Positions 1-62,738 of a stretch of DNA of 64,000 nucleotides are shown piece by piece. A program made the translations under genes and the position numbers. Each line of letters begins with the position of its first letter. Positions within the stretch are counted from its first letter, which is position 1. The notes beneath the pieces were generated by a model. That model was not told the DNA's origin, did no database searches, and was given only the letters and a program-made list of their open reading frames with translations. The stretch is taken from positions 62,001 through 126,000 of the IMG/VR virus record IMGVR_UViG_3300050190_000082; one strand, 5' to 3'. The DNA comes from a virus.

Positions 1-1
1 C

Positions 2-121
2 TTACCTTGGACGAATAAAGTCTCACATAAAGGGCAAATGACAAATATTAGAGGAGCTGAAAAGGTGGTGAAAAATTTATCATGGGGGAATTTAGAGCAT
101 TCAGGGATGATAATGTCTTAA
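2..121 (+). CDS. C-terminal end of a ParM/actin-like gene (partial)
   Basis: An open frame enters from the left edge and ends with TAA at 119-121, giving 39 residues. It contains MTNIRGAEKVVKNL, which resembles the C-terminal (A/T)N-hydrophobic-RG segment of plasmid-segregation actins of the ParM/StbA type. It overlaps the start of the next gene, a ribbon-helix-helix protein, by 40 nt, and a parM-parR order is usual in type II partition operons. Only the tail is visible, so the family call is an inference from a short match plus context. Confidence 0.35.
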   Translation, partial: LPWTNKVSHKGQMTNIRGAEKVVKNLSWGNLEHSGMIMS

Positions 122-312
122 AACCTTTATTAGATGCAATTCCTAAGAAAAAAATGAGTAAAGTAATTAGGAGAGCATTATATGATTATTTTTTCAAAGG
201 GAAAGATATAGTTATGGCAGAGGATGAAGATAGTTATATAGAAGAAATTAAACAAGTTGAAATTAAAATAGAACCTGTGAGAGAGATTAAATTTGATATG
301 TTTGAAGATTAG
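82..312 (+). CDS. Ribbon-helix-helix DNA-binding protein, ParR-like
   Basis: A 76-residue protein. The N-terminal half (residues 4-37) has the pattern of a ribbon-helix-helix fold: a short strand FRAFRD, then LKPLLDAIPKKKMSKVIR and a second helix RRALYDYF. The C-terminal tail is acidic. Such proteins bind repeated operators, and downstream of an actin-like gene this one would be the centromere-binding ParR adaptor. An antitoxin is the main alternative. ATG at 82 is the only start before an in-frame stop, with AGGTGGTG upstream. A terminator follows at once, so the pair ends an operon. Confidence 0.5.
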   Translation: MGEFRAFRDDNVLKPLLDAIPKKKMSKVIRRALYDYFFKGKDIVMAEDEDSYIEEIKQVEIKIEPVREIKFDMFED

Positions 313-2390: not shown

Positions 2391-2507
2391 ATGATGAAGT
2401 TACTAGAGACACTTTTGAATATCGCTTCTTATGGGATTCTAGCAATGATGTGTGTCACAGTCATTAAAATTGGAATAAAGGTTGTAGGTTATAGAAAGAG
2501 GAGGTAA
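2391..2507 (+). CDS. Small membrane protein, first gene of the transfer-like operon
   Basis: Start chosen at ATG 2391 because GGAGGG lies 9 bases upstream; a longer frame from 2310 has no ribosome binding site. The 38 residues form one transmembrane helix (about 8-28) with a basic end VVGYRKRR. The next gene starts 5 bases after its stop, so the pair is cotranscribed and probably part of the same membrane complex. Confidence 0.55.
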   Translation: MMKLLETLLNIASYGILAMMCVTVIKIGIKVVGYRKRR

Positions 2508-2512
2508 TCACT

Positions 2513-2740
2513 ATGCTTCTTGACGCTTTTGAAAAAACTATATTCCCTTACTTAGTGCAAATTGGAGGAATTCTCTTTATATATTCAATCATAGCAAGTG
2601 GCTACGTAGTAATGCGTAAACATGATATGAGGGAGTTAGTAGAAAAACTTCGTGCTCTTGTTGTTGGCTATACACTAGTAAAAGGCGGTTTTGTGATCTT
2701 AGCTTTTATTAATAAATTGATTGAGAATATGAAAGTTTGA
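2513..2740 (+). CDS. Small two-helix membrane protein of the transfer-like operon
   Basis: 75 residues with two hydrophobic segments (about 8-29 and 47-66) separated by a basic loop MRKHDMRELVEKLR. Size and topology resemble the small membrane subunits (TrbC/VirB2/PrgI-like) that accompany conjugation ATPases, but there is no firm signature. AAAGAGGAGG precedes the ATG. It sits between another small membrane protein and a 113-residue membrane protein. Confidence 0.55.
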   Translation: MLLDAFEKTIFPYLVQIGGILFIYSIIASGYVVMRKHDMRELVEKLRALVVGYTLVKGGFVILAFINKLIENMKV

Positions 2741-2750
2741 GGTGACAGAA

Positions 2751-3089
2751 ATGGCAGGATTTTTTGGAGATATTGTAAACCCATTTATTGCTAATCCATC
2801 TTTAAACACACCAGAGCAATCTAACTTTATTGAAAGAGGGATTAGCAATGGAATTGAAAAAGGTTTTGGTGCAGTTGGAGATAAAATTATACATGCAGGA
2901 CAGCTAAAAGCTCAGAGTTTTGCAGAGAATTTGCCACAATTACTAGGAATGGGATTAATTTGTTTCTATTGTTATGTCGGATATAAGACTATGTTTAGTC
3001 CTGCAAAGAATGATTTATCAAAAGTATTCCCAGTTACAATGGTGTATATCATTTTCAGACTTTTCTGGAAAGTAGTATTGCATATATAG
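2751..3089 (+). CDS. Membrane protein of the transfer-like operon, 112 aa
   Basis: Start at ATG 2751, with GAGGTGA 7 bases upstream; an in-frame GTG at 2742 lies inside that site. The N-terminal 60 residues are polar with a Gly-rich amphipathic stretch (GISNGIEKGFGAVGDKI), followed by two hydrophobic helices near the C-terminus. Not recognised as a named family. Twelve bases separate it from the ATPase gene, so it probably acts with it at the membrane. Confidence 0.55.
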   Translation: MAGFFGDIVNPFIANPSLNTPEQSNFIERGISNGIEKGFGAVGDKIIHAGQLKAQSFAENLPQLLGMGLICFYCYVGYKTMFSPAKNDLSKVFPVTMVYIIFRLFWKVVLHI

Positions 3090-3101
3090 GGGGTTTTTAG
3101 A

Positions 3102-5483
3102 ATGTTAGAGCAACTTAATTTTAGGGGTAAAGAATTATTTCGCAAAGAAAAAAATCAATATGAAGTATTTGAAATTACCCCATCTAGATATATAGACCCA
3201 GCAAAAGCATTAGAGGAAGTATTGAATCAAATGACTGCTTGTTACGAAGGCAATTTGCGATGGAATTATGAAACTAAGTCCTTTGTGTATAGCAATAGTC
3301 CAATATATTATGAGATACTTTATTCAGAAGGGAAAATTCATTTTAACTATGTATTGCCACATAAATATTCCAAAATTATTACAAGAAAGATAGATAAGAT
3401 TTTTAGGGTAGCAGGTATAAACCAAAAAGAAGATTACTTTCCTAAGATGTTCGGAAATACACAATCTTGTTCTTTCCACCAATCTCGCCACTTCATGTTT
3501 AGTCTTTCAACTGATATAAAGGAAACTGGACTTCTTGATGGATTAATGTCTATTGTTGATAATTTAGAAAAAACCGATAATGTACTTCTCCAAATAGGAA
3601 TTGCTCCACAGGAAGATCATTGGAAAGCAGAGTGGCTTAAAGCTAATCAAAGATTTAAGGCTGGAGATGCTTTAAATGTTCAAGGAAGTATACTTCTTGA
3701 TGCTGTAGATAAGACATTTAAAATAGGTGATAGTTTCTTTAATCTAGTGGATAGTTTGCTAGGAGTGGATACAAAGAAAAAAGAAACATCTAGAATGGAT
3801 ATGCAATCAAGAAGATTTGAAATGATGGGGAATACAAATTATAGACACGCACATATGACTACAGCAAAAGTTAATTGGAATGGTTATCTAGTAAGCATAA
3901 AAGTATTCTGTGATAATTCTAGTCGAACTAAATATTACTCAAGACTATTCAACGCTGCATTCAGAATTTTAGATGCTGATCAAGAGCTTAGGATTGGAGA
4001 TATAAAAGGATTTAAAAGTAAGGAAAGAGTTTTTGATTCACAGATATTTGATAGAAATATATGGAGTTGTAAGGAACTCAGTCAGTTTCTAAGACTACCA
4101 GACCGAAGGATGCAATTAGACTATAAATCAAGTATGAAGAGTATTGAAGTGACAGAGAATCCAATTCCCGAAGAATTACTTAGTGGTAAAATTAAGATTG
4201 GTGATGCTAGTTACAAGGGTGTAAAAATTCCTGTATATTATCCTGAAGAATATGCCATGAAAGCAATGCCCAAAGTCCTTGTAGGCCCGATGAGAGCAGG
4301 TAAGACAGAGAAATTAAAACATTTCATAATTGAAGCTATAAAATCAGGGAACAGTGTAATTTGTATTGACACAATCAAATCCTGTGAAGTAGTTGAGGAT
4401 GTTCGGGATTATATGCCTGAAGAGTTTAAGGATAAGTTGGTAATATTAGATTATAGTAATATTAGACTTAGACTACCTTTAGCATTTAATGAACTAGTTG
4501 ATGTTAAATTTGTAGACCATATTGACGAAATGATGGCTGCTTCCCATCTCACAGGAAGTTTAATAGGATTTGTAAATGCTGTATCTGGATTTGATGATGA
4601 ATTAACCCCTAAAATGAAGAGAAATCTTAGTGTTGCAGGTAAGGTAGTTTTATCTCAAAAAAATTCAACAATCAAGAATGTTTTCGATGTACTAGAAGAA
4701 TGTGATATTAGAGAACAATTTATTCAATCTTCTGGACTCCCAGAAAGCAATAGCATGATACAACAATTAAGATTATTAGATGATGGAAAGGGTGGAACAA
4801 ATTATTCAATGGTATCTGGAATCCTTGACAGGGCAAGTGCAATTATGAATGATTATTGTTCAGAAATTCTTTTATCTACCCCTAGTAATCCAGAGATAAA
4901 CTTTACTAAATTTGCTAATGAGGGGAAATGCGTTCTTATAAAAATGAGCGAAAATGTATTTGACAGAGAAGCATTAAGACCACTTGTTACATTCCTATAT
5001 TTTAAAATTTGGTTAGCTGTTGCAACTGCTAGAGCAAATATAGATAAACCAAAAATGTGCTTTTTAGTATTAGACGAAATACATCAATATCCAGAGATAG
5101 CGACATTCTTATCTTCTAAGGCTAAGGAAAGTGCAAAATTTGGACTATCTTATATGCTTACTTCCCATTATTTACCAGATATGAAACGTCTTTTACCAAA
5201 TTTAAAATCAGCAGGAACAAATTTTATTTTACTAGGTGGAACATCCAAAGAAAATTATAAACTGCTAGAAACTGAATTAATGCAAGGGGATGTAAATCTT
5301 GAGGAAGCAATGCAAACTAAACCTTTTTATTCTCTAAACATCATAAATTATAATAGAAAATATGCTATTTTTACAACAAAATCATACCCTGAGTGGAAGA
5401 AATGTGGTTGGCTTAAAAAAGTAGATAGAAGTAGACTAGATTTAGAACATTCAAAGAAATATGGAGTTCCATTTGAAGGATAG
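3102..5483 (+). CDS. HerA/VirD4-like ATPase (DNA-transfer type)
   Basis: A 793-residue protein with an N-terminal domain of about 380 residues of unknown fold followed by a RecA-like motor. Walker A is GPMRAGKT at residues 395-402 and Walker B ends VLDEIHQYP with D658-E659. The order (long N-domain, motor with SxVicIDtxKs after Walker A, late VLDEIHQ) fits the HerA/FtsK/VirB4-VirD4 superfamily of pumps that move DNA or protein through membranes. It is flanked by small membrane proteins and a wall hydrolase, which points to conjugation-like transfer. No relaxase is visible in the window. A packaging motor is less likely, as the phage part is a tailed siphovirus that would use a terminase. Confidence 0.75.
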   Translation: MLEQLNFRGKELFRKEKNQYEVFEITPSRYIDPAKALEEVLNQMTACYEGNLRWNYETKSFVYSNSPIYYEILYSEGKIHFNYVLPHKYSKIITRKIDKIFRVAGINQKEDYFPKMFGNTQSCSFHQSRHFMFSLSTDIKETGLLDGLMSIVDNLEKTDNVLLQIGIAPQEDHWKAEWLKANQRFKAGDALNVQGSILLDAVDKTFKIGDSFFNLVDSLLGVDTKKKETSRMDMQSRRFEMMGNTNYRHAHMTTAKVNWNGYLVSIKVFCDNSSRTKYYSRLFNAAFRILDADQELRIGDIKGFKSKERVFDSQIFDRNIWSCKELSQFLRLPDRRMQLDYKSSMKSIEVTENPIPEELLSGKIKIGDASYKGVKIPVYYPEEYAMKAMPKVLVGPMRAGKTEKLKHFIIEAIKSGNSVICIDTIKSCEVVEDVRDYMPEEFKDKLVILDYSNIRLRLPLAFNELVDVKFVDHIDEMMAASHLTGSLIGFVNAVSGFDDELTPKMKRNLSVAGKVVLSQKNSTIKNVFDVLEECDIREQFIQSSGLPESNSMIQQLRLLDDGKGGTNYSMVSGILDRASAIMNDYCSEILLSTPSNPEINFTKFANEGKCVLIKMSENVFDREALRPLVTFLYFKIWLAVATARANIDKPKMCFLVLDEIHQYPEIATFLSSKAKESAKFGLSYMLTSHYLPDMKRLLPNLKSAGTNFILLGGTSKENYKLLETELMQGDVNLEEAMQTKPFYSLNIINYNRKYAIFTTKSYPEWKKCGWLKKVDRSRLDLEHSKKYGVPFEG

Positions 5484-5495
5484 GAGGGGATAGAT

Positions 5496-6038
5496 ATGTC
5501 TGAGTTAACTGATAATACTCGAATAACCACTAATTGGAATGAAGTAGATAGCTTTCACAAAACTCCCCATAAAGGTGTGGATTTGAGTACGAAAACTGGA
5601 ACAAAAATTATTGCACAAGACCCAGGACAAGTCCAAATAACAACTGACCAATGGATAGGAGTGGGAATTAGACTTAAAATGGCAAATGGAGATATTGTAG
5701 TTTATGGTCATACTTCAGAACAGGATGTTGCTAATGGACAAATGGTTAATGCAGGTGACTTGTTAGGGCTTACAGGGGGTGCTGTGGGTAGTAAAAATAG
5801 CGGTTTGACCACAGGTGAACACGTTCATGTAGCCCTCATACACGAAGGGGTTTTATCAGATCCGACAAACTATCTATTTCATCATGGACAAGTACAAACT
5901 AATTCAAGTCCTAGTAGTCCATTTCTGTTTCCAGTAATACTTATATTATTAGCAATAATCTTTTATAAATTTCGTAAATTCTTCATCTATGGAGCATTAG
6001 CAACATTGGTTTTGGGTATTATATTTATAGTATCCTAA
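5496..6038 (+). CDS. M23 (LytM-type) peptidase with C-terminal membrane anchor
   Basis: 180 residues. The M23 zinc site is complete: HKGVD gives H25 and D29, YGH gives H72, and GEHVHVAL gives H109 and H111. Two hydrophobic helices (about 143-157 and 163-180) follow, so the catalytic domain is tethered rather than secreted freely. M23 enzymes cut peptidoglycan cross-bridges. Twelve bases behind the ATPase gene, it fits a local wall-opening role for a transfer machine. GGAGGGGA precedes ATG 5496. The inverted topology (catalytic domain first, anchor last, no signal peptide) is unusual. Confidence 0.8.
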   Translation: MSELTDNTRITTNWNEVDSFHKTPHKGVDLSTKTGTKIIAQDPGQVQITTDQWIGVGIRLKMANGDIVVYGHTSEQDVANGQMVNAGDLLGLTGGAVGSKNSGLTTGEHVHVALIHEGVLSDPTNYLFHHGQVQTNSSPSSPFLFPVILILLAIIFYKFRKFFIYGALATLVLGIIFIVS

Positions 6039-6041
6039 ATG

Positions 6042-6088
6042 AAAATGAAATAAGGACATATTATTTATATTCTTATTTCATTTTAAAA
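6042..6088 (+). terminator. Terminator of the transfer-like operon
   Basis: AAAATGAAATAAG (6042-6054) pairs perfectly with CTTATTTCATTTT (6072-6084), a 13-bp stem ending in a short T-run. It directly follows the M23 gene. Confidence 0.7.
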
Positions 6089-6114
6089 CTTAATATAAAG
6101 AGGTGTAATATAAT

Positions 6115-6279
6115 ATGGGTTATATAAGAAATATATTTAATGGGATTAATAGACTAACTATTAGTAAAAGTCAGATGATTGATTATATAGGTGAAAGGGT
6201 AAATATTGATGAAGAAATTATAGATCAGATTCTAAATGAAGAGAAGAATTTTCTGAAAGAGAAAAACATTATGTATTAA
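6115..6279 (+). CDS. Hypothetical protein, 54 aa
   Basis: A short frame with AGAGGTG upstream of ATG 6115. The product is helical and charged, with an acidic centre (NIDEEIIDQILNEEKNF). Not recognised. It lies between the operon terminator and the promoter of the DGQHR-like gene. Confidence 0.45.
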   Translation: MGYIRNIFNGINRLTISKSQMIDYIGERVNIDEEIIDQILNEEKNFLKEKNIMY

Positions 6280-6304
6280 AATTAACGTTTTTGGTCTATT
6301 TAAG

Positions 6305-6333
6305 TTGATTTATGGATACTCTTAATATATACT
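6305..6333 (+). promoter_or_regulatory. Sigma-A type promoter for the DGQHR-like gene
   Basis: TTGATT (6305-6310), 17-base spacer, TATACT (6328-6333). It is about 70 bases ahead of the start codon and separate from the upstream operon. Confidence 0.6.
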
Positions 6334-6355
6334 CAAAAGAAGGGAATTGATTTAT

Positions 6356-6379
6356 ATGGAATTAGTGCCAAAAATATAA
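6356..6379 (+). other. Possible 7-codon leader peptide
   Basis: AGAAGGGA is followed 8-9 bases later by ATG and the frame MELVPKI-stop, all between the promoter and the real gene start at 6404. It may be a short upstream reading frame or chance. Confidence 0.2.
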
Positions 6380-6403
6380 TTTTTAATGGAGGGTGAATAC
6401 GAA

Positions 6404-7750
6404 ATGAGTAGAAAAAATAAATCACAAGAAGAAACATCTGCAACGTCAGAAATTGAGAATGATGCTATATGGGATAAGGGTACAAGAGATGGAGATAGTA
6501 CAGAGGAAGAGGAGGGGAAGGAAATGCCCCCATTATTATCCCTAAGTGAAAAACTGAGAATAGAAGAAGACAATAGTAAATCAGACAACGGCTTAGTTGA
6601 ATGGGAATTAGAGAATTGCCAACCTGTAATAATTAATAAAATAGTAGGTAAATATTCAGTCCCAATATCTGGGGGATTATTAGCTACTATGGCAAATGAT
6701 CTTTTGCTTCATTATAATGAGAAAACACAAAGGGGCAAAAAGCTACGAGCTAAGGGTGAAGTTCCTTACCTTATGGTTTCAAAAGTTAAAAAGATTTATG
6801 AAAAACTTATTTCTGGAGAGCTAAATGGAATGCTCATCAGTTTGAATTCCAGAATAATAAAAAACGAGAATGGGGAAATATTAAATCCCCTAAATTATGA
6901 TTCAGATTCACAAACTCTTAATGGCTCAGGGGAATTAGATGTGGTAGATGGGTGGCACAGAATTTCCGCATGTCAATACTGGCTTAAAAAATGGAAAATT
7001 AAAAAGAACAGAAAAATCATCCCTAGTCCTTGGGATTACGAGTTTATCACAGCAATTGAACATAAAGAAGAAGAAAATGCAGGTCTATTATTTGTTGAGT
7101 ATGGTTCTACTCAATTAAAAATTCAAACATCTAAAATTAAGTTTCTTGATGTTTTTGATTATGCAAATATGATCACTAGAAACCTGATGAAGGGGTCATT
7201 AAGAGACAAGATAGAAATAGATAAAAATAGAACAAAGGGTACGAATAATATTGTCACATTTGCTACATTAAATGATGCAATAAATGATAACTTTAAAATT
7301 CCAGTAGAGGAAGATGTTGAAAAAATAAGTACCTATTTGAACTTATTTTTCACTAAATTAATTAATATTTTCCCTGAGTATTTTGGTAATATGTCAAAAG
7401 AGGACAGATCAATAATGAGGACTAAGGATTTGAATCTTGAATTATTGATGTTTAGAGGTTATGTTGCTATTAGTTCTAGATTGTATGGAAAAGAAAATTG
7501 GGAAGATAGTTTGTCAAAACTTAGAAGTGTAATTCAAATCGGTTCATGGCGTGGTACTATACTGCAATCCGATTGTCCTATATGGGATAGAATTTTCAGA
7601 GGGGGAGATGAGCGTAAGATAGTTAGTGGAAGTACAACCGTTAAATATTGCAGTAATGTATTAGGCGATTATATTGAATTTGGCATTGATGAAACACTTA
7701 GGAAAATTAAAGAAGCTGATGAAGAGAAGTTTAGAAAATTGAACAAGTAA
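6404..7750 (+). CDS. DGQHR/DndB-like protein with DGWHR variant motif
   Basis: 448 residues; start at ATG 6404 with GGAGGGTGA 8 bases upstream. The N-terminal 50 residues are acidic and low-complexity. The centre holds VVDGWHRISACQYW (about residues 180-193), matching the D-G-x-H-R core of ParB-fold and DndB/DGQHR proteins, with Trp at the usual Gln. Such proteins bind nucleotides or DNA and regulate DNA modification or partition. No other Dnd genes are nearby, so a role in phosphorothioation is not supported. Possibly a phage DNA-binding or partition accessory protein. Confidence 0.55.
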   Translation: MSRKNKSQEETSATSEIENDAIWDKGTRDGDSTEEEEGKEMPPLLSLSEKLRIEEDNSKSDNGLVEWELENCQPVIINKIVGKYSVPISGGLLATMANDLLLHYNEKTQRGKKLRAKGEVPYLMVSKVKKIYEKLISGELNGMLISLNSRIIKNENGEILNPLNYDSDSQTLNGSGELDVVDGWHRISACQYWLKKWKIKKNRKIIPSPWDYEFITAIEHKEEENAGLLFVEYGSTQLKIQTSKIKFLDVFDYANMITRNLMKGSLRDKIEIDKNRTKGTNNIVTFATLNDAINDNFKIPVEEDVEKISTYLNLFFTKLINIFPEYFGNMSKEDRSIMRTKDLNLELLMFRGYVAISSRLYGKENWEDSLSKLRSVIQIGSWRGTILQSDCPIWDRIFRGGDERKIVSGSTTVKYCSNVLGDYIEFGIDETLRKIKEADEEKFRKLNK

Positions 7751-9473: not shown

Positions 9474-9587
9474 AATTAATAAGGAGGTGAGGACTGTTAG
9501 GGATATCTTTTAGAAATATCTTTGGTAAGAAACAGGACCATCCATTCGCTAAAAAAATATCCAAAAGAAGAGAGGGGAAAACACTAC

Positions 9588-10997
9588 ATGAAAAAAACTA
9601 AAAAGTTCTTAGCTAGTTTGGTAATTATGGGTATGGTTGCTACCATGGTCCCACTAAATGTTTTGGCAGCAACAGGGGTAACAACGGATCGAATTGGTGG
9701 TGCAGACAGATATCAAACTGCTAATGCCGTAGCAGATAAGATTGTATCTCCGACTACTGCAATCCTTGCCCCAGCTGAAAATGATAACTTGGTAGATGCC
9801 TTAGCGGCAGCACCATTAGCTGGAACCAAATCTCCTATTTTACTGACGCAAAGCAACACCCTGACTGCTGCTACAAAAACTGAACTGGCTAAACTAGGCG
9901 TTACAAAGGTCTATGTAGTTGGAGCAATCAGCAAAACAGTCGTCGACCAAGTAAGTGCAATGGGTATTACAGTTACCACTCTCCAAGGCGCTGATCGTAT
10001 TGCAACTGCGGCTATGATTTCTTCTAAACTCACCACCGCACCAGCAGGTTCATTCGTAGTTGGCTATAATGCTTTGGCAGATGCATTGTCGGTAGCTTCT
10101 TATGCAGCAGCTAATAACTATTCTATCTTAGTAGCAAATCCTGATGGAAGCCTTCCGGTATCCGAGGCCACTTATAAAGGTGCTAAAGTTTACACCGTCG
10201 GTGGACCTAAACTCGTAGCAGACATCGCTGGTGCTACTCGTCTCGCGGATACAGATCGATTCGCTACGAATAAAGTCGTGCTCGAAACTCTTGGTTACAC
10301 CTATAACAAAGTCTATGTTGCTAACGGAACACAGGCACACTTAGTTGACTCACTCGTTGCTTCATCCTTAGCTGCCTTAGATGGCGCTCCAATCGTTCTG
10401 ACAGACACATTTACTGGCGGGGATGCTACTGCAGCTGCCATCGGTACTAAACTTGCTGACAATGCGGTAGTGGTTGCACTTGGTGGAGATCAGGTTGTTA
10501 CGAATGAAACTTTGGCGAAGGTTACCAAAATAGATTATACTTACACTGTAACAGACGGTAAAGCCCAAATTACGAGGTACACAGGGGATGGTGGAGCTAT
10601 TGCAATACCAAGTACATTAGGTGGAGTTCCTGTCATAAGCATCGGCTACGACGCTTTTTTCTATTGCACAGGCTTAACTAGTATTAGTATTCCGCAAGGA
10701 GTCACAAGTATCGGTGACGGGGCTTTTGCCTTTTGCACAGGCTTAATTAGCATTACCATTCCTAAAGGAGTCACAAATGTATCCAGCTATGTCTTTTACT
10801 ATTGTCCAAACTTAACTACTATTAACTTTAACTCGGCAACAACAACTATATATGATGATTCATACACAATTCCAGACACAACAAAGATTATAGGATATGC
10901 CTCATCTACCGCAAAAGATTACGCTACAAAATATGGAAACACGTTCGAAGTTATACCAGAAACGTTAGCTGCTTTAATGGACAGGATTCATACTTAA
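9588..10997 (+). CDS. Secreted surface protein: CWB2 repeats plus leucine-rich repeats
   Basis: 469 residues; start at ATG 9588 (GAGGGGA upstream). Signal peptide MKKTKKFLASLVIMG...LAA. Three CWB2-type cell-wall-binding repeats follow (about residues 30-320), recognised by DRIGGADRYQTA, NLVDALAAAPLAG and VYVVGAISK-type units. The C-terminus has BspA-like leucine-rich repeats (TGLTSISIPQGVTSIGDGAF). CWB2 modules anchor proteins to anionic wall polymers in Clostridia. It is on the opposite strand to its neighbours, has its own promoters, is visibly GC-richer, and is bracketed by two similar hairpin repeats: an independently expressed cargo gene, probably of host origin, that would coat the lysogen surface. 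Confidence 0.85.
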   Translation: MKKTKKFLASLVIMGMVATMVPLNVLAATGVTTDRIGGADRYQTANAVADKIVSPTTAILAPAENDNLVDALAAAPLAGTKSPILLTQSNTLTAATKTELAKLGVTKVYVVGAISKTVVDQVSAMGITVTTLQGADRIATAAMISSKLTTAPAGSFVVGYNALADALSVASYAAANNYSILVANPDGSLPVSEATYKGAKVYTVGGPKLVADIAGATRLADTDRFATNKVVLETLGYTYNKVYVANGTQAHLVDSLVASSLAALDGAPIVLTDTFTGGDATAAAIGTKLADNAVVVALGGDQVVTNETLAKVTKIDYTYTVTDGKAQITRYTGDGGAIAIPSTLGGVPVISIGYDAFFYCTGLTSISIPQGVTSIGDGAFAFCTGLISITIPKGVTNVSSYVFYYCPNLTTINFNSATTTIYDDSYTIPDTTKIIGYASSTAKDYATKYGNTFEVIPETLAALMDRIHT

Positions 10998-59772: not shown

Positions 59773-60291
59773 TTATACACACGCAAACTCATTAGTTTTA
59801 TAAGCAATACAAACTCCAGAATAATTTTCATTTACCACAAATTCATATGTTTCATAAAATGGCAACTTGCCAATCCCTAAATCTCTTGATGAAATAAAAG
59901 AATCTTTAAGTTCTAAATCTTGTTCTGAGTTGAATGATTGATCAATATAATCTAAAATCATATCATAGCGCAAAGACCCATAATCAGTCTTAATTAATGA
60001 ATTGTGGCAAATAATGTAGAAAAAGATTGACCCATTTTTAAAAGTTATACCATTCGGTTTGTAATTAAATTGCATGGTTATAAAACTTTTAGCAGTAGTA
60101 TCTGGTGTGGGTACAAATTTAAATGGATATATAAAATCGTAGACCAAAGATGATAAATCAAAATTATCAGGTATTGGTGTATCTAGACAATTGCCTTCAG
60201 AATTGATAAGGCATTTTACTAGAGATTCATTTGTCACTAATTTCATTATAATATCCATTTTATTTTTACTTAATGTTGAGAATCTACCCAA
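59773..60291 (-). CDS. Probable tail terminator/completion protein, 172 aa
   Basis: TTG start at 60291 with GAGGTG upstream. The beta-rich centre, FVPTPDTTAKSFITMQFNY and NGSIFFYIICHNSLIKTDYG, resembles the tail completion proteins of contractile or flexible-tail phages. Gene order (connector, this gene, tail tube) fits. Confidence 0.45.
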   Translation of the reverse strand: MGRFSTLSKNKMDIIMKLVTNESLVKCLINSEGNCLDTPIPDNFDLSSLVYDFIYPFKFVPTPDTTAKSFITMQFNYKPNGITFKNGSIFFYIICHNSLIKTDYGSLRYDMILDYIDQSFNSEQDLELKDSFISSRDLGIGKLPFYETYEFVVNENYSGVCIAYKTNEFACV

Positions 60292-60306
60292 TTATTTATT
60301 CACCTC

Positions 60307-61572
60307 TTACATGAGTGATTTCGTCTGTATAGTAAATTCGTCATAAATACTAACATCATCTGATTTACTAGCCCTAATAGTGATATATTTATTTATATAA
60401 TTTGAATTACTTGTAGTTTTTAGAGTAATACTACTTACAGTTTGACTAACAACACTTACATAAATATTGCTTGATAAATCTTGATTACTAATATTCCATA
60501 CAACTGATTTACTAGCATCCGCAACACCATTGTTGAACACAGTGGAAGTCAATGTTAAATTAGCACCCAATTTAACTGTTGAATTTCCTGTAATACTAAC
60601 AGTATAATTATCAGCAATTACAGCACTTTGCACAGTTATATTTATTGAAGCTGAAACTCCATTATAAGCAACAGTTATTGTAGATACCCCCTCAGAAATG
60701 CAGGTAATTATTCCATTATTAACAGTTGCAATTAATGGATTTGAAGAGACATATGATAGTATAGGAGATGTAACTTGAACAGTATTATCAGTGCATACAA
60801 TATTTAATGTTATTACATCATTTACATTTTGTGCAGATGAACCATTCAGAATATCAACTAAATAGGTATGCTGACGAGAATAATAATTAGCAATACCTAG
60901 CTCAATATTATCATCATCTATTTTTTGAGTTAACTCCAGTACAAGAGAAATTAATCCTTTATTATTAATTATCTGTGAATAATCATCAACTTCATCTACT
61001 TTATAAACTCTTTTTCCTAAAACAAATCTTTGTCCTTCTATTATAGAATCTGTAATAGAATTATACTGGATATAAATTCTTGACATACCGACAGGCAAAA
61101 TAAAATACGCATCAACATTATTTTTTGTAAATCGTTTAGAAGATTCAATCACACATGGAAATTGTTGAATAGTACCATCAGAGTCAATAAATTTAAGAAA
61201 ACTATTACATTTTTCTATTGTACAAGTTGGTTTATCAGCATTATTTATATCACTTGCAATTGTTAACCAAATTTCATCAATAGAATTAATTGTCATATAA
61301 ACATATTGACCTGTAAAGAAATTTAAGGGAATATCAGATTGAGTAGGTTCTAATGACAATTTTTTCTGATTATCTAATAATTTATATGCTTGACCACTAA
61401 AAACCCAAGAATCGTAGAAGGTGCTAGTACTACCTAAGCCTATTTGCTGATACTCAGGAGCGTCTTTAAAGGTGGAAGAAAATAATTGATCCTTTATATT
61501 TATTCTTTGTTCTCTAATTGTTGAACCATTTATATTGACCTTGTTCTGATACGCAGAAAACCAATCAACCAT
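60307..61572 (-). CDS. Structural protein with two Ig-like domains
   Basis: 421 residues from ATG 61572 (AAGGGGTGA upstream). The N-terminal 235 residues are a virion-type beta domain; then a BIG_2-like unit (SSNPLIATVNNGIITCISEG, VSTITVAYNGVS) and a second Ig-like unit (TVSITGNSTVKLGANLTLTS). Ig decorations on phage particles bind carbohydrates weakly. It overlaps the upstream gene end by a few bases before start selection. Confidence 0.55.
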   Translation of the reverse strand: MVDWFSAYQNKVNINGSTIREQRINIKDQLFSSTFKDAPEYQQIGLGSTSTFYDSWVFSGQAYKLLDNQKKLSLEPTQSDIPLNFFTGQYVYMTINSIDEIWLTIASDINNADKPTCTIEKCNSFLKFIDSDGTIQQFPCVIESSKRFTKNNVDAYFILPVGMSRIYIQYNSITDSIIEGQRFVLGKRVYKVDEVDDYSQIINNKGLISLVLELTQKIDDDNIELGIANYYSRQHTYLVDILNGSSAQNVNDVITLNIVCTDNTVQVTSPILSYVSSNPLIATVNNGIITCISEGVSTITVAYNGVSASINITVQSAVIADNYTVSITGNSTVKLGANLTLTSTVFNNGVADASKSVVWNISNQDLSSNIYVSVVSQTVSSITLKTTSNSNYINKYITIRASKSDDVSIYDEFTIQTKSLM

Positions 61573-61579
61573 AAAAATG

Positions 61580-62050
61580 TCACCCCTTAGCACCTAAGCC
61601 CTTGAGGGCATTTTGAGTATTCAAATATGTATAGGTTATCATCTTCTGATAAACTTCTTTTCTAGCGTTTTCATATATATTAGATAGTTCTCTTAGATGC
61701 TGACCTTGACTATACATTTTAATTTCTCCATAGATAGCTTGAGCGTATAAACGTTGTTCCTTGATTTTGTCACGAAGAAAGACTAACCCCATAAGATCAA
61801 CAACTATGCCAGATTCCGCAAGTGATAAATCTTGATTAAATTGAGTACTGTCCACATCAATATCATCCATTTTATTAATTACACTTATACCATTATTATA
61901 GACATAATTATAAAATTCCTCACGGGCACGTTTTAATAATATAGTCAGATAATTAGTCAATTGTGTTTGAGAATATTTAGTTGCTAAATCTATAGAACTA
62001 ACTTCAGTCTGAAGAAAGTCATTAAACAAATCACTAAAAAGTGTAGCCAA
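61580..62050 (-). CDS. Head-tail connector-like protein, about 156 aa
   Basis: Start taken as TTG 62050, behind AGGTGGTGA; GTG at 62059 lies within that site. Helical, with YLTILLKRAREEFYNYVYNN and an acidic/Asp-rich VINKMDDIDVDSTQF, the pattern of small connector or neck proteins. Not certain. It is followed 7 bases later by the Ig-domain structural protein. Confidence 0.45.
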   Translation of the reverse strand: MATLFSDLFNDFLQTEVSSIDLATKYSQTQLTNYLTILLKRAREEFYNYVYNNGISVINKMDDIDVDSTQFNQDLSLAESGIVVDLMGLVFLRDKIKEQRLYAQAIYGEIKMYSQGQHLRELSNIYENARKEVYQKMITYTYLNTQNALKGLGAKG

Positions 62051-62087
62051 AATCACCACCTGCCATTCAATTATTTATCCCTAATTA

Positions 62088-62738
62088 CTAACTAATCATT
62101 TCATTTGTCATTTCTTGGATGCTATTGATTGCATATTTAGAACTATAATGATTTTGAACCTCATTATATTTATTATTTCTCAGACATTCAGAATTACCTT
62201 TAATATATTCTTGTAAAAAGAACTCTAAAAATGCCCATGCAACCACAGGAGAAAACCCATTAAGTTCTTTCAGCATTTCCATATTATCAATTTTGAGCAA
62301 TTCTTGAAATTTACTTTTATCTGCACCATGCTCTTTAAATGAATAGTCGATATTAAAATATTCCCTAACTTCTTTATCTAAGATAACTATTTCAAAAGTA
62401 TCAAACCATTCTTTAAAGGCATAATACATTTCATCAAGAATTTCAAATTTAATTCTTCGTTCATCAAATAATTTATTAAATTTAATGTTAACTCGTCCAC
62501 GAATAAAGGATGCACTACCAGGAGCCATATGCATAATTCCAACCATTTTATCAGGTTTAATTGAATTAACTGTAATTTCTTGTTGTGCTTCTTTTTCACT
62601 TAATTGTTTTTCAAGTTCATCAATTTTTAGTTGACTTGATTTAGATGCTTCTGCAATTGCTTTAGTTACAGCTTCTTTTATCAAGGCTTGAATATCAACT
62701 TCTGGAGTCTCTTTTACAGTTGTCTTTTTTACTACCAT
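62088..62738 (-). CDS. Structural-module protein, 216 aa
   Basis: Not recognised. The N-terminus is a basic, helical coil (EAVTKAIAEASKSSQLKIDE), then a compact domain with NIKFNKLFDERRIKFEILDE. A scaffold-like or structural role is plausible. It begins directly upstream of the connector-like gene, separated by 28 bases. Confidence 0.5.
   Translation of the reverse strand: MVVKKTTVKETPEVDIQALIKEAVTKAIAEASKSSQLKIDELEKQLSEKEAQQEITVNSIKPDKMVGIMHMAPGSASFIRGRVNIKFNKLFDERRIKFEILDEMYYAFKEWFDTFEIVILDKEVREYFNIDYSFKEHGADKSKFQELLKIDNMEMLKELNGFSPVVAWAFLEFFLQEYIKGNSECLRNNKYNEVQNHYSSKYAINSIQEMTNEMIS

What the first reader, a model, noticed from the sequence alone, without database searches (positions are those of the whole stretch)
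2391..6038. Compact transfer-like operon on a tailed phage genome
Seen: five genes with gaps of 5-12 bases: three small membrane proteins, a HerA/VirD4-like ATPase with intact Walker A and B, and an M23 peptidase with catalytic domain first and membrane anchor last. It ends in a 13-bp terminator. Known: conjugation needs a motor, membrane subunits and a wall hydrolase. Inference: a reduced DNA-transfer or DNA-uptake apparatus in a phage-plasmid, giving two ways to spread (virion and cell contact). No relaxase is in the window.
Basis: partly seen in the sequence, partly recalled or inferred. Interest (0 to 1): 0.6.

Follow-up and report, generated by a model that had tools for sequence, protein, structure and literature searches.

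The report
Phage secretion motor in spore-former viruses
A phage of a spore-forming bacterium carries a stripped-down version of the type IV secretion machine that bacteria use to move DNA through their envelope; the same machine, often next to a DNA-segregation gene, recurs in many unrelated phages of spore formers, where it may carry viral DNA into the spore or into another cell.

Summary
In detail: five tightly packed genes at 2391-6038 (gaps 5, 10, 12, 12 bases) ending in a strong hairpin. The large protein is not a loose HerA/VirD4 look-alike. Its model matches VirB4, the T4SS motor, in both domains (ATPase Z 27; N-terminal domain alone Z 14, with only VirB4 standing out). Relatives put a VirB2-pilin-like protein and a second small membrane protein directly upstream, so the unit is a VirB2/VirB3/VirB4-like core plus an M23 wall hydrolase. 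It was found at 69 loci (31 ATPase families at 60% identity). An actin-like segregation protein lies upstream in 11 of 30 families and in this phage. No relaxase of four families, and no FtsK-type motor, was found on the 153.8-kb record, so conjugation is not shown. Every phage and plasmid host found is an endospore former, except one probably misassigned host; 65 of 65 bacterial genomes carrying it have spoIVA, against 77% background. I favour a translocon moving the element's own DNA across a host membrane, most likely the sporulation septum; cell-to-cell transfer and protein export remain open. Parts were noted in SPP1 and tyrovirus papers. The VirB4 assignment, the cross-phage module and the spore-former restriction appear unreported in the library searched.

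The parts
1..121 (+). 3' end of an actin-like (ALP/ParM/Alp7A-type) DNA-segregation gene; whole gene is record 61195-62121
   Evidence: Pfam ALP_N 8e-7 and MreB-like_C 7e-7; same-strand upstream neighbour of the ATPase in 11 of 30 ATPase families
82..312 (+). 76-aa candidate ParR-like partner of the actin-like protein
   Evidence: overlaps the actin-like gene; counterpart after the actin-like gene in L007; no family hit, role inferred
2391..2507 (+). g1, 38-aa single-TM protein (start may be 2394)
   Evidence: counterparts in L007 and L008
2513..2740 (+). g2, 75-aa two-TM protein in the position of the VirB2-pilin-like protein of relatives
   Evidence: relatives at this position hit T4SS_pilin (1.6e-5, 1.6e-4) and TrbC/VirB2 (0.004, 0.03), below curated cut-offs; g2 itself has no hit
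2751..3089 (+). g3, 112-aa amphipathic plus TM protein directly before the motor, the VirB3 position; fused to M23 in relatives L058 and L069
   Evidence: VirB3 identity inferred from position and size only
3102..5483 (+). VirB4-like motor ATPase, 793 aa (PHROG_5156, unknown function)
5496..6038 (+). M23 peptidoglycan endopeptidase with two C-terminal TM helices
6042..6084 (+). intrinsic-terminator-like hairpin followed by a short U-rich stretch
6386..7750 (+). DndB/DGQHR-domain protein, conserved downstream neighbour in this clade and in the separate family L058
   Evidence: Pfam DndB 1.3e-10

Best explanation
The operon encodes a stripped-down type IV secretion core. A VirB4-like ATPase sits under small VirB2-like and VirB3-like membrane proteins, and a membrane-anchored M23 peptidase opens peptidoglycan. 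It works with the adjacent actin-like segregation system, which would hold and position the element's DNA. I propose that it drives the phage's own DNA through a host membrane, most probably the sporulation septum into the forespore, so the genome is carried in the spore. Shown: VirB4 fold in both domains, intact motifs, operon, conserved neighbours, and occurrence only with spore formers. Inferred: VirB3 role of g3, DNA as the cargo, direction, and the septum as the site. I put about 0.9 on 'VirB4-type T4SS-derived core', about 0.6 on DNA as cargo, and about 0.35-0.4 on the forespore route.
For: Foldseek best hits are full-length VirB4/TrwK (8rtd, E 1.7e-14). VIA-align gives VirB4 4ag5 Z 27.1, rmsd 3.8, over 343 residues. 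The N-terminal 345 residues alone match only VirB4/TrwK (Foldseek E<1e-3 for 8 VirB4 chains and nothing else; Z 14.0, rmsd 3.7, 235 residues; next unrelated 7.7). Pilin-like upstream protein. Two or more small TM ORFs just upstream in 20/31 families versus 11/145 control ORFs (Fisher 3e-11). Actin-like gene upstream in 11/30 families, including SPO1, D6E, FADO and this phage. Hosts in six phage tblastn searches and two plasmid searches: Bacillus, Geobacillus, Lysinibacillus, Brevibacillus, Alicyclobacillus, Terrisporobacter, Laceyella, Thermoactinomyces. 65/65 class-level genomes with the motor have SpoIVA versus 93/121 background. Strictly lytic phages carry it, and SPP1 gp32 is non-essential (PMC6316719), fitting a function outside the plaque cycle. 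Phage entrapment in spores is an established phenomenon, and segregation genes have been proposed to raise it (PMC9429907, PMC10294663).
Against: No experiment. No excess of sporulation sigma-factor promoters upstream. In conjugation VirB4 is not the DNA-coupling motor (own knowledge), and no VirD4 is adjacent, so DNA as cargo is not shown. The host pattern could reflect phage lineage or ecology: neither the genome counts nor the host lists are corrected for phylogeny, and a phylum-wide sample was not discriminating (84% SpoIVA+). Replic_Relax next to the motor in SPO1, FADO and two plasmids fits a transfer role as well. M23 is present in only 7 of 30 families.
Confidence: 0.4

Rival explanations
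1. Cell-to-cell (conjugation-like) transfer: the VirB4-like core plus a nicking protein and the segregation system send phage or plasmid DNA to a neighbouring cell, giving a second route of spread.
For: VirB4 kinship; T4SS pilin-like subunit; Replic_Relax protein encoded right after the motor in SPO1, FADO, a B. amyloliquefaciens plasmid and a Laceyella plasmid; tyrovirus authors suggested the block came from a conjugative plasmid (PMC9703825).
Against: No relaxase of four families on this record; plasmids carrying the motor are typed non-mobilizable; no VirD4 adjacent; VirB6 and VirB8 not identified; no hit in phages of non-spore-forming Bacillota, where conjugation is common.
Confidence: 0.25
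2. Protein export or envelope take-over during infection: the core secretes a phage protein or remodels the envelope (for example superinfection exclusion), without moving DNA.
For: Expressed early in SPP1, with membrane partners, and proposed as a translocon of macromolecules (PMC6316719); T4SSs without VirD4 that export proteins are known (own knowledge).
Against: Repeated link to actin-like segregation genes and to Replic_Relax points to DNA; no conserved secreted effector neighbour seen.
Confidence: 0.2
3. Membrane anchor for partition: the membrane proteins and ATPase only tether or position the phage-plasmid for segregation; nothing crosses the envelope.
For: Adjacent actin-like gene and ParR-like gene, ParA on the same record.
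Against: A wall peptidase, a pilin-like subunit and a VirB4 N-domain are not needed for tethering; many families carry the motor without the actin-like gene.
Confidence: 0.1

Closest known systems
VirB4/TrwK ATPase of type IV secretion systems (R388 TrwK; Thermoanaerobacter VirB4 4ag5)
   Same: fold of both the N-terminal domain and the ATPase domain; order small membrane proteins then ATPase; pilin-like subunit upstream in relatives; wall hydrolase
   Different: sequence identity near 10-16%; carried by tailed phages; no VirD4, VirB6 or VirB8 identified nearby; next to an actin-like segregation gene; Walker B motif DE(P/I)HQ
SPP1 gp31.1/gp31.2/gp32 and the GBK2 homologues (PMC6316719)
   Same: same ATPase family (GBK2 is in my set, L027) and small membrane partners upstream; authors proposed a trans-membrane translocon
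   Different: authors noted similarity of the C-terminus to TrwB, VirB4 and FtsK without choosing, and left the role open; no peptidase or actin-like gene noted; host restriction not noted
Tyrovirus gp11-gp18 block (parM, type IV secretion protein, replication-relaxation; PMC9703825)
   Same: actin-like gene plus T4SS-type ATPase plus Replic_Relax, as in FADO and SPO1 here
   Different: read as a plasmid import; the window lacks Replic_Relax and has an M23 peptidase instead
SpoIIIE/FtsK DNA translocases (including the FtsK/SpoIIIE-like gp098 of B. cereus phage Bc431v3, PMC3601020)
   Same: possible role: pumping DNA across the sporulation septum
   Different: no PF01580 domain on the record; fold closer to VirB4 than to FtsK (Z 27 against 16.5); no TM segments of its own
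HerA and related ATPases (4d2i, DndH, TdpA)
   Same: sequence profile of the family scores HerA best in the PDB (E 9e-11); ATPase-domain fold
   Different: N-terminal domain matches VirB4, no NurA-type partner seen, membrane-protein operon

Membership tests
VirB4 ATPase | RecA-like ATPase domain with Walker A and B | tested here: met
   (4ag5 Z 27.1)
VirB4 ATPase | VirB4-type N-terminal domain, which VirD4, HerA and FtsK lack | tested here: met
   VirB4/TrwK the only significant match, Z 14.0 over 235 residues; model pLDDT 78
Type IV secretion core | VirB2/TrbC pilin-like subunit | tested here: inconclusive
   relatives hit T4SS_pilin 1.6e-5 and TrbC/VirB2 0.004, below cut-offs; the window's g2 has no hit
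Type IV secretion core | VirB3-like small two-TM protein next to VirB4 | tested here: inconclusive
   g3 has the size, topology and position but no family hit
Type IV secretion core | VirB6 and VirB8 subunits | not tested
   no dedicated search
Conjugative element | relaxase on the element | tested here: not met
   PF03432, PF13814, PF01076, PF02486 absent from the held 153.8-kb record; the record may be incomplete and other relaxase families were not searched
Conjugative element | VirD4/TcpA-type coupling protein separate from VirB4 | tested here: inconclusive
   PF01580 (TcpA/FtsK group) absent; the TrwB-type profile hits this ATPase weakly; other VirD4 profiles not run on the whole record
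FtsK/SpoIIIE translocase | FtsK_SpoIIIE domain | tested here: not met
   no Pfam FtsK hit
HerA helicase | HerA N-terminal barrel and NurA partner | tested here: inconclusive
   N-domain search lists VirB4, not HerA, but absence from that list does not exclude it
Genome packaging motor | terminase role in packaging | tested here: inconclusive
   a separate terminase candidate (TerL_ATPase 6e-4, Terminase_6C 0.004) lies at record 132011-133906
Spore-entrapment function | raises phage DNA carriage in spores | not testable with these tools
   only host distribution and gene neighbourhood tested

The most novel reading that the evidence does not exclude
Phages and plasmids of endospore formers have repeatedly adopted a T4SS-derived, VirB4-powered translocon that, with an actin-like segregation system, loads their own DNA across the sporulation septum, so that the virus is stored in the spore. 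It would be a dedicated virus-into-spore delivery machine shared by temperate and strictly lytic phages.
Probability: 0.3. Interest if true: 0.9.

Novelty: new variant of a known kind. Interest (0 to 1): 0.62.

Why it matters
A T4SS-type motor in strictly lytic phages such as SPO1 and SPP1 has no role in the textbook phage cycle. If it loads DNA into spores, it would explain how phage genomes are captured in endospores beyond chance and host-borrowed partition, and would make that old question testable with one deletion. If it serves cell-to-cell transfer instead, phages would have a virion-independent route of spread. Either way a PHROG of unknown function (5156) gains an identity.

Tried and rejected
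Sporulation sigma-factor promoter consensus upstream of 32 operons: no excess over shuffles (sigE 1 vs 2.2, sigF 0 vs 1.6, sigG 3 vs 3.5, sigK 10 vs 7.1 +/- 2.4). Phylum-wide SpoIVA test: background 84%, not discriminating. Three weak hits there (G186, G209, G306; E 1e-13 to 2e-18, C-terminal part only or fragment) are SpoIVA-negative and were taken as distant superfamily members. Microcystis phage MaeS as a counter-example: its ATPase is 65% identical to those of B. megaterium phages Stills/Staley, so the host label is doubtful; not proven. The 25-sequence alignment was too divergent for pattern scans, and the one genome-contig scan gave one locus. DNA polymerase of SPO1 as a Herelleviridae yardstick: too unspecific at a loose cut-off, though it shows 139 Staphylococcus, 21 Enterococcus and 21 Lactobacillus phage records in the collection, none of which turned up with the motor. 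FtsK, HerA and terminase identities considered and set aside on structure. Stewart et al. 2009 (SPO1 genome) is not held.

Full report
What is there. The five genes at 2391-6038 are real, tightly packed and well supplied with ribosome-binding sites, and end in a 15-bp hairpin. The window is part of a 153,759-bp virus record. The rest of the record was read piecewise and carries virion genes, a terminase candidate, ParA and an actin-like ALP/ParM-type gene whose end lies at window 1-121. Two IMG/VR contigs have the same five genes in order at 67% and 63% ATPase identity, with the actin-like gene upstream and a DndB/DGQHR protein downstream.

What the large protein is. Family searches gave only PHROG_5156, unknown function, and weak coupling-protein hits. 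A 25-member profile found HerA best in the PDB, with VirB4 and coupling proteins weaker, so sequence alone cannot place it. An AlphaFold model built with 37 relatives (pLDDT 81.5) matches full-length VirB4/TrwK best, with VirB4, TrwB and DndH nearly tied on the ATPase domain (Z 27.1, 26.4, 25.9). The N-terminal domain folded alone settles it: only VirB4/TrwK is significant, Z 14.0 against 7.7 for the next unrelated fold. The motor is therefore VirB4-like in both domains.

What surrounds it elsewhere. Relatives occur in SPO1 (gp27.4), D6E, GBK2, TP-84, phage G, FADO, Slashvirus, Alicyclobacillus and Terrisporobacter phages and a few plasmids and in 45 IMG/VR contigs. In the combined set of 69 loci (31 families at 60% identity) the motor is preceded by small membrane proteins far more often than control genes are (at least two in 20/31 against 11/145, Fisher 3e-11). 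The typical pair is a signal-bearing two-TM protein that hits T4SS_pilin and TrbC/VirB2 just under cut-off, and an amphipathic two-TM protein directly before the motor, the VirB2-VirB3-VirB4 order. M23 peptidase is present in 7 of 30 families and is fused to the second small protein in L058 and L069. An actin-like segregation gene lies upstream in 11 of 30 families, and a Replic_Relax protein is nearby in 4.

Who carries it. Six tblastn searches of 50,697 phage records and two of 72,556 plasmid records returned only elements of endospore-forming genera, apart from Microcystis phage MaeS, whose motor is 65% identical to B. megaterium phage proteins. In a class-level sample of 399 genomes, 65 carry the motor, and all 65 have the sporulation gene spoIVA: 40, 18 and seven listed. 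The background is 93 of 121. For the first 40 alone Fisher gives 2e-4. This is not corrected for relatedness, some of the weaker hits may belong to a sister family, and the phylum-wide sample was uninformative.

What it does. Shown: an intact VirB4-type motor, a wall hydrolase with complete zinc ligands, membrane partners, an operon, and conserved neighbours. Inferred: that the cargo is DNA (segregation and Replic_Relax neighbours) and that the membrane crossed is the sporulation septum (host restriction; presence in lytic phages; SPP1 gp32 non-essential, PMC6316719; phage entrapment in spores is known and segregation genes were proposed to promote it, PMC9429907 and PMC10294663). Conjugation is not excluded, but four relaxase-type families and the FtsK/TcpA-type motor are absent from this record, and carrier plasmids are typed non-mobilizable. 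No sporulation promoter signal was found.

Novelty. SPP1 authors proposed a translocon of unknown role and left VirB4, TrwB and FtsK open (PMC6316719); tyrovirus authors saw a parM/T4SS/Replic_Relax block and read it as a plasmid import (PMC9703825). The VirB4 assignment in both domains, the module across unrelated phages, the M23 fusion and the restriction to spore formers were not found in the papers searched; subscription journals are not covered.

Noticed in passing
record 5797-6837 (L009:5797-6837): MrpR-like protein (Pfam MrpR_N 4e-10), related to the master repressor of prophage SP-beta; suggests SP-beta-type lysogeny control in this phage.
   Followed up: no
record 60256-61056 and 61195-62121 (L012, window 1-121): Two partition systems side by side: ParA (minus strand, with a 157-aa possible partner) and an actin-like ALP gene (plus strand).
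   Followed up: partly
window 9522-10997: Secreted protein with three CWB2 wall-binding repeats and BspA-type LRRs, like clostridial S-layer/adhesin proteins; hints at a clostridial host and lysogenic conversion.
   Followed up: no
L019 (MT362618.1): Microcystis phage MaeS has a VirB4-like protein 65% identical to B. megaterium phages Stills/Staley and an annotated SleB gene; its host label may be wrong.
   Followed up: partly
L023 (phage G) 2758-3717 and 4138-5829: Phage G has a 319-aa six-TM protein (gp153, VirB6-like candidate) and gp155, which weakly matches the ATPase profile (7e-5), beside the motor gp156: possibly a fuller machine.
   Followed up: no
L058:7126-7782 and L069:6159-6839: M23 peptidase domain fused to the small membrane protein that precedes the VirB4-like motor.
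   Followed up: partly
window 6386-7750; L007:11014-12276; L058:10192-11544: DndB/DGQHR-domain protein conserved just downstream of the operon, also in one separate ATPase family; role unknown.
   Followed up: partly
L025 (B. pseudofirmus phage vB_BpsM-61) 4996-5139: Spo0E-like sporulation regulator annotated close downstream of the VirB4-like gene.
   Followed up: no
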